A DNA stretch of 5,272 nucleotides, taken from Actinomycetota bacterium (GTDB lineage Bacteria > Actinomycetota > Humimicrobiia > Humimicrobiales > Humimicrobiaceae). A program made the position numbers and the translations under genes. Numbering within the stretch: the first letter of the stretch is position 1; each line of letters opens with the position of its first letter. Location: contig JAMCQQ010000321.1 in assembly GCA_023379515.1 (NCBI GenBank), positions 1-5,272 of the forward strand. Reading direction: 5' to 3'. Shown here piece by piece: positions 2,025-4,845 of this stretch. The notes under the pieces were generated by a model. The model worked only from the letters and a program-made list of their open reading frames with translations. It made no database searches and was not told the DNA's origin.

Positions 2025-2033
2025 TTATAGAAT
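2025..2033. repeat. Left 9-bp direct repeat (putative target-site duplication)
   Basis: TTATAGAAT is identical to bases 2260-2268 and abuts the left end of the MITE-like element. A 9-bp duplication fits several DDE transposase families, so it does not identify one. Confidence 0.7.
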
Positions 2034-2036
2034 GTT

Positions 2037-2057
2037 AGCATCTAAAATTTCATGATA
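2037..2057. repeat. Left terminal inverted repeat of the MITE-like element
   Basis: It reads AGCAT then CTAAAATTTCATGATA. It pairs with 2236-2256 at 20 of 21 positions, and the exception is a T/G pair that would still pair in RNA. Three bases further out the terminal base also matches (G2034 with C2259), so the full terminal repeat may be 24 bp with mismatches. Confidence 0.8.
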
Positions 2058-2079
2058 GCAATAAAGGAAAATTTTAAGG

Positions 2080-2219
2080 GCCATGATGGGTATTTCAAAA
2101 ACACGCAGGCTTTTCCCCGGCGAGTAAAAGCCAGCTCAGTTTCAGGCTCAGCTCTCCTCCCGGAGGAGGAACCATGCCCGCTTAAGCCTTCAAATGGTTT
2201 TCTCAATACCCATCATGGC
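2080..2219. repeat. Subterminal 15-bp inverted repeat pair inside the element
   Basis: GCCATGATGGGTATT at 2080-2094 is the exact reverse complement of AATACCCATCATGGC at 2205-2219. The arms lie 22 bases (left) and 16 bases (right) inside the terminal repeats and enclose a 110-base core. They could be transposase-binding sites or lengthen the foldback stem. The core also contains two small hairpins: GGCTTTT/AAAAGCC (2108-2114 with 2126-2132, 11-base loop) and CTCCTCC/GGAGGAG (2154-2160 with 2162-2168). Confidence 0.7.
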
Positions 2220-2235
2220 TCATCAATTTATTTTT

Positions 2236-2256
2236 TATCATGAAATTTTAGGTGCT
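2236..2256. repeat. Right terminal inverted repeat of the MITE-like element
   Basis: It reads TATCATGAAATTTTAG then GTGCT, and is the reverse complement of the left arm at 2037-2057 apart from position 2252. On the complementary strand this end begins GGAAGCACC. Confidence 0.8.
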
Positions 2257-2259
2257 TCC

Positions 2260-2268
2260 TTATAGAAT
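2260..2268. repeat. Right 9-bp direct repeat (putative target-site duplication)
   Basis: This is the second copy of TTATAGAAT, abutting the right end of the element. The match does not extend on either side (T2024 against C2259; G2034 against T2269), as expected for a discrete duplication. Confidence 0.7.
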
Positions 2269-2410: not shown

Positions 2411-3376
2411 TTAAGCTTTTGTTTGTCTTGCTCTTTTTCTATTTCTTGCCCTGAGGCTCTGCCAGATTATAATCAATATTATTGCTATCAATATAAGTAC
2501 CGGACTCATAACAATAAGTACTGTGGTCATCCCTCTGACAACTGTCAAGGCACCTCTTGCTCCTCTTTTAACAGCTCCCAGGAAACCGCCTTCCGTTGAT
2601 TCAGTTATTGCCTGGGGTTCAGCCAAACTAATATCTATTGTTGAAAAAGAAACCATATTATCAAGGTAATTCATTCTGCCTTTTATAACTTCTATTTCAC
2701 CCTGAACATTGCTGAGCTCTCTTTGTACTTCTATGCTGTCCGTAACTTTGACTGATTTCTTCATCAGCTCTAAAAGAACCTGCTCCTGAGCCTGAAGATT
2801 CTTCAATCTTGATTCCAGGTCAACATATTCCTGGGTAACATCTGTTCCGCCCAGTTGAACACTTTTTACCGTACCCAATTGCTTTATTTTGTTTATTACG
2901 GCATCAAAATTCTTTTGTTCAACTCTTATTGTTATCATGCCGCTTGTAAGTTTTCCTTCAGAATCCGAATAGCTTTGTGAATTGCTTACAAAACCATTAT
3001 TCGCTTCAGCAAGTGTTGCTATCTCAAAGAACTTTTTCTCAAACTCACCCTTATTAACTTCAAGCTGTATATTCGCAGTTTTTATTATTTTGCCGCTGGC
3101 AGCCACAGTCTTGCTATAATCTGCAGTACCCTCCTGGGCATAATAATCTCCGGTGTCACTTGCTGGCGCTCCGCCCTCCTGCGTCATTGCTTCACCTTCC
3201 GATACACGTGCCGTTGTGGATACGCTTTCATTTTTCGTTAAATCTGCCGGATAAGTAGTATTAGTCATTTCCCCATTTACTGCAGATTTTAAGGTGGCAC
3301 ATGCCGGCAGTACTGCAGCAATCATAAGTATTGCCAGAATGATACCTAGTATTACTTTTGGTTTTATCTTTTTCAT
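2411..3376 (-). CDS. DUF4349 domain-containing membrane lipoprotein
   Basis: The product has 321 residues and an envelope layout. It starts with a basic MKKIKPK, a hydrophobic stretch (9-25) and a lipobox-like LPAC with Cys26, so it is probably a lipoprotein, although Pro at -2 is not the commonest form. A Ser/Thr/Glu/Gly-rich linker follows (about 35-90), then the DUF4349 region (about 95-305): KIIKTANIQLEV, GFVSNSQSYSD, the LGTVKSVQLGGTDVTQEYVDLESRLKNL block and a coiled coil (about 185-240). One transmembrane helix (about 283-306) and an Arg/Lys-rich cytoplasmic tail end the protein. I chose the ATG at 3376, preceded by GGGGGG, over the in-frame ATG at 3418, which would add 14 residues before the signal peptide. 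The family's biochemical function is unknown. The gene follows rsgI on the same strand after 87 bases without a terminator, so it may be read from sigI-rsgI or from its own promoter. Confidence 0.9.
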   Translation of the reverse strand: MKKIKPKVILGIILAILMIAAVLPACATLKSAVNGEMTNTTYPADLTKNESVSTTARVSEGEAMTQEGGAPASDTGDYYAQEGTADYSKTVAASGKIIKTANIQLEVNKGEFEKKFFEIATLAEANNGFVSNSQSYSDSEGKLTSGMITIRVEQKNFDAVINKIKQLGTVKSVQLGGTDVTQEYVDLESRLKNLQAQEQVLLELMKKSVKVTDSIEVQRELSNVQGEIEVIKGRMNYLDNMVSFSTIDISLAEPQAITESTEGGFLGAVKRGARGALTVVRGMTTVLIVMSPVLILIAIILIIIWQSLRARNRKRARQTKA

Positions 3377-3389
3377 TTTCCCCCCAATC

Positions 3390-3418
3390 TTTATAATAAA
3401 ATTTAAAAAATTTATCAA
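3390..3418 (-). promoter_or_regulatory. Candidate sigma-A-type promoter before the DUF4349 gene
   Basis: On the - strand TTGATA (3418-3413) is followed after exactly 17 bases by TATAAA (3395-3390), close to the vegetative consensus. A transcript would start near 3383, only about seven bases before the ATG and within the G-run that would serve as ribosome-binding site. The leader would then be too short for normal initiation, and the region is so AT-rich that chance matches are likely. Confidence 0.35.
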
Positions 3419-3463: not shown

Positions 3464-4144
3464 TTATTCATTAAATTCTCCATATACAACCAGTTTAAAT
3501 TTAGTTTCGCCATTTTCAATAGGGATCTTTTCTTCTTTAATATAACCAGGATTAAAACCTGGCAGATCTATCGTCACCTGATTTTTGATGCTCCCGTCTT
3601 CAAGCATTATCTCAAGTAAAAAATTGCCTTCAAATTTTAAACTATCATTTTCATTTTCTATTTTAACCTGCAAAACTTTCTGATCTATACTCAAAATCTG
3701 ATAAGAAAATAAAATACCATTAATATTCTCTTCGGTTAAAACATTCTCTTTCTTTAATAAAAATATCTTTTCAAATAATGGCATCTGCCCGGCAGCCTCG
3801 GAATTTTCCGCAGCAGCCTCAGATTGTCCAAGGATCGCATTTTCATCCGTAGTTTTTACTGCTGCAACTGCCTGAGCAGAACCAATTGGAAAATATTGCC
3901 TTAAAAACCTGTAGCTGAAAACTGATCCCATAACCAGTACCACAAGTACTGCAAATCCTACTGCAAGCCCCCTGATCCATGTTTTTTTGTAATTTGAATA
4001 GGAAAATTCATTGTATTTTTTTTCAATTACTATCTCGTCACCAATTTCAACGGAACCTCCAGGAATCCTGTAATTTAAAAACTGGCCATCTTCAGTCATA
4101 ACAATACAATATTTTTTATTTATTTCCATTATTATTGCTTTCAT
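3464..4144 (-). CDS. rsgI: RsgI-type membrane anti-sigma-I factor with atypical ectodomain
   Basis: This is the likely membrane-bound inhibitor of the SigI factor encoded upstream. In its 226 residues the N-terminal cytoplasmic RsgI domain (1-45) is clear: MKAIIMEINKKYCIVMTEDG, then a small beta-barrel pattern ending VEIGDEIVIEKK. One transmembrane helix follows (about 57-80), so the rest should be extracellular: an Ala/Glu/Ser-rich linker (88-120) and a beta-rich region (about 122-226) of alternating hydrophobic strands that resembles an immunoglobulin-like fold, though I recognise no named domain. The usual juxtamembrane block with a DxNPS-type motif, where characterised RsgI proteins self-cleave, is missing; the only Asn-Pro (198-199, GFNPGY) lies near the C-terminus. 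No carbohydrate-binding module is present. It is shorter than Bacillus RsgI (about 380 residues). Its ATG overlaps the sigI stop (ATGA) and GGTGGTG upstream can serve as ribosome-binding site, so translation is probably coupled. The pairing with SigI supports the call despite the divergent C-terminal half. Confidence 0.85.
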   Translation of the reverse strand: MKAIIMEINKKYCIVMTEDGQFLNYRIPGGSVEIGDEIVIEKKYNEFSYSNYKKTWIRGLAVGFAVLVVLVMGSVFSYRFLRQYFPIGSAQAVAAVKTTDENAILGQSEAAAENSEAAGQMPLFEKIFLLKKENVLTEENINGILFSYQILSIDQKVLQVKIENENDSLKFEGNFLLEIMLEDGSIKNQVTIDLPGFNPGYIKEEKIPIENGETKFKLVVYGEFNE

Positions 4145-4845
4145 CTATCGTCACCACCATTGCAGATATCAAGATAGCTAAGTCCATTAAGAACTGCTAA
4201 AACTATTGCTATTATATATATTCGTCCCCGCTCCAGCTTTTTCCGGTGTATTTTTAATATTTTCTCAATTCCCTGAACCGGCAGTCTTTTTGTGCGCATA
4301 AGCTCATTAAGCAGATTATCGTTATTTATAATTGCCAGGGCTGCCTTTTTGTATTCCTGGCGCAAGGTATCTTTTTTGGGAGAGATGCGGACAAGTTCAT
4401 TAAAGCTTATATTCCAGTTCTTTAGAAGAGAGGTATATTCTATAACTTCGAGCTTCCTGTTCTCTTCTTCAGTTTCAAGCATATATCTTTCCATCGATTT
4501 CTTGTCAAGAACTGCCGACAATTCATCCCGGGAATCTTCATCAATGCTGATAGTTTTTAGTTTGGACTTTTTCCTTAAAAAATCAATCACTCTAGCATTG
4601 ATAACAAGTCTTGAAAAATTTAGAAATGCACCTTTTTCAAAATTGAAGGAATTGACTGCTTCCATAAAAGCTGACAAACCGACTGAAAGTTCATCATCTG
4701 TTCCATATTCCAGATATCTGCCAACTTTTTTCTGGACCACACTGGCAATGAAAGGTTTGAAATCTGATATGAGTGCGTTTAGCTCATCGTTATCATTTTT
4801 GGATTTGATGACTCTTTGTTCAAGTGAAATTTTTTTAAAAAACAT
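4141..4845 (-). CDS. sigI: RNA polymerase sigma-I factor
   Basis: This 234-residue alternative sigma factor of the SigI family is close to the family's usual size. The N-terminal start MFFKKISLEQRV is typical. A sigma region 2-like segment (about 25-95) contains FKPFIASVVQKKVGRYLEYGTDDE, then GLSAFMEAVNSFNFEKGAFLNFSRLVINARVIDFLRK, matching the core-binding and -10-recognising part. After a variable acidic linker (about 98-135) comes the SigI-specific C-terminal DNA-binding domain (about 140-225): LVRISPKKDTLRQEY, LMRTKRLPVQGIE and HRKKLERGRIYIIAIVLAVLNGLSYL. No good ribosome-binding site precedes the ATG, but this start reproduces the family's N-terminus. The stop overlaps rsgI by four bases. 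In Bacillus subtilis SigI responds to heat and envelope stress, and in cellulolytic clostridia to polysaccharides; which applies here is unknown. It lies 32 bases after the GltD-like gene, so it may be co-transcribed with it or read from a promoter inside that gene. Confidence 0.95.
   Translation of the reverse strand: MFFKKISLEQRVIKSKNDNDELNALISDFKPFIASVVQKKVGRYLEYGTDDELSVGLSAFMEAVNSFNFEKGAFLNFSRLVINARVIDFLRKKSKLKTISIDEDSRDELSAVLDKKSMERYMLETEEENRKLEVIEYTSLLKNWNISFNELVRISPKKDTLRQEYKKAALAIINNDNLLNELMRTKRLPVQGIEKILKIHRKKLERGRIYIIAIVLAVLNGLSYLDICNGGDDR

What the first reader, a model, noticed from the sequence alone, without database searches (positions are those of the whole stretch)
2025..2268. 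MITE-like element with perfect 9-bp flanking duplication
A 226-bp unit with 21-bp terminal inverted repeats is bounded on both sides, at identical distance, by TTATAGAAT. Removing the element and one copy gives a plausible uninterrupted exporter-operon trailer leading into its terminator. The interior is clearly more GC-rich than its surroundings (53 of 90 bases in 2101-2190). I do not recognise its ends as a named family, so it may be an undescribed non-autonomous transposon.
Basis: partly seen in the sequence, partly recalled or inferred. Interest (0 to 1): 0.7.

Follow-up and report, generated by a model that had tools for sequence, protein, structure and literature searches.

The report
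Small hitchhiking transposon in uncultured actinobacterium
A 226-base DNA parasite with no gene of its own appears to have jumped in between two genes of an uncultured bacterium, and what look like related copies turn up elsewhere in public sequence data; it is a real but ordinary kind of element from a little-studied group.

Summary
Window 2034-2259 has 21-bp terminal inverted repeats (20 of 21 paired), a second inverted pair inside them, a GC-rich core and a perfect 9-bp flanking duplication, TTATAGAAT. Chance tests make coincidence unlikely. No genome was held for the window, so I searched a protein database with the two meaningless reading frames that cross the element. Ten clusters (25 member sequences) match; six are named 'hypothetical protein', four have no name. 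Five carry different locus tags of one prefix (M1308, Actinobacteria bacterium). In three others the frame runs past the right end: similarity to the window stops at 2256-2259 and the three flanks differ. Hits lie on opposite strands and some change frame, so this is repeated non-coding DNA. It is best explained as a MITE moved in trans by a transposase that makes 9-bp duplications. Not shown: the helper insertion sequence, an empty site, and different duplications at other copies, because no DNA of other copies could be fetched. New member of a known kind, of modest interest.

The parts
2025..2033 (.). left copy of the 9-bp target-site duplication TTATAGAAT
   Evidence: chance tests
2034..2259 (.). 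226-bp non-autonomous element (MITE)
   Evidence: related sequences
2037..2057 (+). left terminal inverted repeat; the three bases between it and the duplication are GTT
2236..2256 (-). right terminal inverted repeat, 20 of 21 paired with the left; the three bases between it and the duplication are TCC
2080..2094 (+). left inner (subterminal) repeat GCCATGATGGGTATT; shares CATGAT with the outer repeat (CATGAT at 2051 and 2082), possibly a second transposase-binding site (inference)
2205..2219 (-). right inner (subterminal) repeat, inverted
2101..2190 (.). GC-rich core (53 of 90) that can form internal stems, e.g. GGCTTTT...AAAAGCC at 2108-2132
2052..2243 (+). 63-aa frame across the element, judged not a gene; used as a probe for copies
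   Evidence: (no Pfam family)
2042..2206 (-). 54-aa antisense frame across the element, judged not a gene; used as a probe for copies
   Evidence: (no Pfam family)
2260..2268 (.). right copy of the 9-bp target-site duplication TTATAGAAT
   Evidence: chance tests

Best explanation
2034-2259 is a MITE: a short non-autonomous DNA transposon without a transposase gene, with 21-bp terminal repeats plus inner repeats. A DDE-type transposase encoded by an insertion sequence elsewhere in the host binds its ends, moves or copies it, and joins it to staggered cuts 9 bp apart, whose repair gives the duplication (inferred). It has spread to several places in at least one uncultured actinobacterial lineage (indirectly shown). 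Here it sits in AT-rich DNA between the stop of a MacB-type permease gene and a hairpin terminator between two convergent genes, where it should do little harm (inference); read-through RNA would fold into one long hairpin (predicted). Which IS family helps it is not known; by 9-bp duplication the IS4, IS5, IS256 and ISLre2 families are candidates (family names and their duplication lengths recalled, from no call).
For: Anatomy and duplication beyond chance. Related sequences: the 63-aa frame found 6 clusters of 6 candidates (E 5.6e-31 to 3.8e-5, 11 member sequences) and the 54-aa antisense frame 4 clusters of 4 candidates (E 3.5e-26 to 1.1e-19, 14 member sequences). P0121 and P0127-P0130 carry locus tags M1308_13155, _08320, _21480, _13475 and _19945: five loci under one prefix. 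P0127-P0129 need at least 3, 4 and 5 base changes from this copy over the 53 codons after the start. The similarity of P0124, P0125 and P0126 ends at 2259, 2256 and 2259, and their residues beyond differ from one another and show no significant match to the window flank. P0124-P0126 match the window partly in frame +3 and partly in frame +1 (P0125, P0126: +1, +3, +1), which is the mark of indels in non-coding DNA. No family match for the two frames in Pfam or for the three hits tried of ten in NCBIfam.
Against: No DNA of another copy was read, so different 9-bp duplications and empty sites are not shown, and left-end boundaries were not seen. No transposase with these ends was found. Member counts may include duplicate database entries (sources 'ncbi,nr'). 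That five tags with one prefix are one assembly rests on GenBank convention (recalled). The exact right end occurs in only three stretches of genome contigs, all judged chance, so the family is not visible in that collection by that pattern.
Confidence: 0.92

Rival explanations
1. A conserved structured RNA or regulatory hairpin of the exporter transcript (trailer or riboswitch-like), not a mobile element.
For: Very stable fold; a GC-rich core in which ten residues of one frame (PCPLKPSNGF) are identical in all 7 sequences of A1.
Against: No Rfam match at gathering score and only three hits far below it at E up to 1. Exact 9-bp flanking duplication. Several loci under one prefix and differing flanks at the right end do not fit one trailer. 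The search needs shared 5-residue words, which favours finding a conserved block.
Confidence: 0.03
2. A dispersed repeat of the ERIC/REP/Correia kind that carries a functional RNA or protein-binding site and is kept by selection, being mobile only in the past.
For: Multicopy palindromic intergenic repeat with a block of the core that stays alike in hits of only 44-59% identity.
Against: A perfect 9-bp duplication and near-perfect terminal repeats point to a fairly recent insertion; REP and ERIC elements are not flanked by 9-bp duplications (recalled).
Confidence: 0.04
3. A real small protein gene repeated in the genome.
For: Open frames of 63 and 54 aa, with relatives of which six are annotated as hypothetical proteins.
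Against: Annotated on opposite strands at different loci of one prefix; frame switches in P0124, P0125 and P0126; the stop codon of the antisense frame lies in the terminal repeat; no family matches.
Confidence: 0.01

Closest known systems
MITEAba12 (Acinetobacter; PMC6382973, passages seen)
   Same: Short element without a known coding sequence, imperfect terminal inverted repeats, 9-bp target-site duplications, many copies.
   Different: 113 bp with 16-bp ends GGCTTTGTTGCA(C/T)AAA, proposed helper ISAba12, AT-rich (78%); here 226 bp, other ends, GC-rich core, helper unknown, other phylum.
TIMEs, Tn3-derived miniature elements (PMC4133298 and PMC13367494, search listing with start of abstract only)
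   Same: Non-autonomous, inverted-repeat ends, moved in trans.
   Different: Tn3-type ends of about 38 bp and 5-bp duplications (recalled); here 21-bp ends and a 9-bp duplication.
ERIC / REP / Correia intergenic repeats (recalled, from no call)
   Same: Dispersed palindromic intergenic repeats.
   Different: No 9-bp target duplication (recalled); sequences not compared here.

Membership tests
bacterial MITE | short, without a transposase gene | tested here: met
   226 bp; its two frames match no Pfam family
bacterial MITE | terminal inverted repeats | tested here: met
   20 of 21 bp; 0 of 5,000 shuffles reach the score
bacterial MITE | target-site duplication | tested here: met
   9 of 9 bp; 5 of 20,000 dinucleotide shuffles at equal offset
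bacterial MITE | multiple dispersed copies | tested here: met
   10 clusters, 25 member sequences, five tags under one prefix; seen as proteins only, not as DNA
bacterial MITE | boundary at the terminal repeat with different flanks | tested here: met
   right end only, in the three hits of ten that read through it (P0124-P0126); left end not seen
bacterial MITE | a different 9-bp duplication at each copy, and empty sites | not testable with these tools
   no DNA of other copies was obtained; no whole genome held
bacterial MITE | resident insertion sequence with the same ends | not testable with these tools
   no host genome held; end-sequence scans of genome and viral contigs gave only what I read as chance hits; the genome scan covered only the exact right-end variant
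Tn3-derived TIME | about 38-bp ends and 5-bp duplication (recalled) | tested here: not met
   21-bp ends, 9-bp duplication
MITEAba12 / ISAba12-like ends | ends GGCTTTGTTGCA(C/T)AAA | tested here: not met
   ends here are G-NN-AGCA(T/C)CTAAAATTTCATGATA

The most novel reading that the evidence does not exclude
The GC-rich core is not mere filler: it is a structured RNA or binding site that the element carries and that is kept under selection while the arms drift, so that the MITE spreads a regulatory cassette through an actinobacterial lineage.
Probability: 0.08. Interest if true: 0.55.

Novelty: new member of a known kind. Interest (0 to 1): 0.3.

Why it matters
It documents a possibly undescribed MITE family in an uncultured, low-GC actinobacterial lineage, and shows that such elements leave a trail of false predicted proteins in public databases which can be used to find copies when no genome is at hand. 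If the core proved functional, it would be a mobile regulatory cassette.

Tried and rejected
Exact searches for the ends gave three stretches in genome contigs (L001-L003, right-end variant only) and one in viral contigs (L004, both variants). I read all four as chance: L002-L004 lie inside open frames, translating as HLKFHD or YHEIL(G/D); the L001 hit lies in overlapping open frames; blastn of the element against the four loci showed no second end. Looser end patterns in viral contigs returned only L004 again. Inner-repeat and core patterns in viral contigs gave none. Back-translated A1 (67 stretches) and the DUF4349 neighbour (17 stretches) gave no confirmed relative in viral contigs. Plasmids gave two pieces at E 0.7 and 0.2, taken as chance; phages none. 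Rfam at E up to 1 gave three hits far below their gathering scores, among them a microRNA-precursor family over 2061-2237, rejected. Promoter-like sites were at chance level (3 found, 2.3 expected) and the terminator scanner, limited to loops of 3-8, found none; folding 2290-2360 shows a long-loop hairpin (z -4.9). A family search (DUF4349) in the genome behind L003 gave 0 of 1 and led nowhere. A sigma-I alignment (A3) was not used further.

The left-end variant was never searched in genome contigs.

Full report
Observation. The described element is there at the stated coordinates. TTATAGAAT flanks 2034-2259 on both sides, the 21-bp ends pair at 20 of 21 positions, and 53 of 90 bases of 2101-2190 are G or C. 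Beyond the 21 bp, the arms match again around GCCATGATGGGTATT, so each arm carries an outer and an inner repeat that share CATGAT. The spacing of the two CATGAT motifs differs between arms (31 bp left, 25 bp right, from the positions). Shuffles make both the duplication (29 of 200,000 mononucleotide; 5 of 20,000 dinucleotide) and the ends (0 of 5,000) unlikely by chance.

Surroundings. Upstream on the + strand lie an ABC-transporter ATPase and a MacB-type permease ending at 1983. Downstream on the - strand lie a DUF4349 protein (2411-3418), an RsgI-N anti-sigma protein, a sigma-I factor above its NCBIfam cut-off (TIGR02895), and the end of a glutamate-synthase-like flavoprotein. The element sits between the permease stop and a hairpin (2295-2346, z -4.9) followed by six Ts (2348-2353). 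Of the 120 listed (of 276) relatives of the sigma factor, the only two with an organism name are labelled 'Actinobacteria bacterium' MAG (P0003, 86% identity; P0063, 57%). I take the host to be an uncultured, low-GC member of Actinomycetota; a Humimicrobiia-like affiliation is only a guess (the name exists in the taxonomy; kinship was not tested).

Copies. No whole genome is held for the window, so I used the two frames across the element as probes in the protein database. The + frame gave 6 clusters of 6 candidates and the - frame 4 clusters of 4 candidates, at an E-value limit of 10. The ten are 51-96 aa long and stand for 25 member sequences; members may be counted twice where the sources are 'ncbi,nr'. 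Five clusters name locus tags with one prefix, M1308, and different numbers; of these, P0121 is read on the opposite strand of the element from the other four. The same sequence called a gene on either strand, plus frame switches in P0124-P0126, points to repeated non-coding DNA rather than a gene.

Boundaries. In P0124, P0125 and P0126 the frame runs out of the right end. Similarity to the window stops at 2259, 2256 and 2259, and the residues beyond share nothing visible with one another or with the window flank. These three come from other sources ('ena', 'jgi', 'jgi') and are 59, 44 and 45% identical to the window frame, so the family is probably older than the M1308 copies. P0127, P0128 and P0129 end at the same residue as the window frame, whose stop codon (2042-2044) lies in the terminal repeat. 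In P0130 the left arm reads like the right arm of the window copy (81% over 16 residues in frame +2, 2198-2245), as if the arms had been exchanged or made alike.

Mechanism. Shown here: ends, duplication, absence of a recognisable transposase gene, several related sequences, right-end boundary. Inferred: movement by a transposase supplied in trans, staggered cuts of 9 bp, transposase binding at the outer and inner repeats. MITEAba12 with its proposed helper ISAba12 is a published example of a MITE with 9-bp duplications (PMC6382973, passages only), but the ends differ. I assign no IS family.

Novelty. Full-text searches for the end and inner-repeat sequences and for MITEs together with Actinobacteria, metagenome-assembled genomes and terminal inverted repeats found no paper; searches found none; the 10 listed of 106 papers were off the subject; (15 listed of 57) listed papers on known MITEs among others, of which I looked into one. 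ISfinder was not available, so 'undescribed' is provisional. Elements of this kind are common; the finding is sound but ordinary, with modest added interest from the alike core (PCPLKPSNGF identical in 7 of 7 sequences of A1). That block may be partly a product of a search that needs shared words.

Noticed in passing
2042-2206 (-), compared with P0130: One M1308 copy has a left arm that resembles the right arm of the window copy, suggesting inversion of the core or conversion between arms.
   Followed up: partly
3464-4845: A sigma-I / RsgI-N pair, which I recall mainly from Firmicutes, lies in a contig whose only named relatives of the sigma factor are labelled Actinobacteria; sigma-I is above its NCBIfam cut-off.
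   Followed up: no
2295-2353: Long-loop hairpin followed by six Ts between convergent genes, a likely terminator (use in both directions is a guess), missed by the short-loop scanner.
   Followed up: partly
P0121-P0130: Database proteins, six of them named hypothetical, that appear to be translations of a MITE; they could be flagged as spurious.
   Followed up: yes
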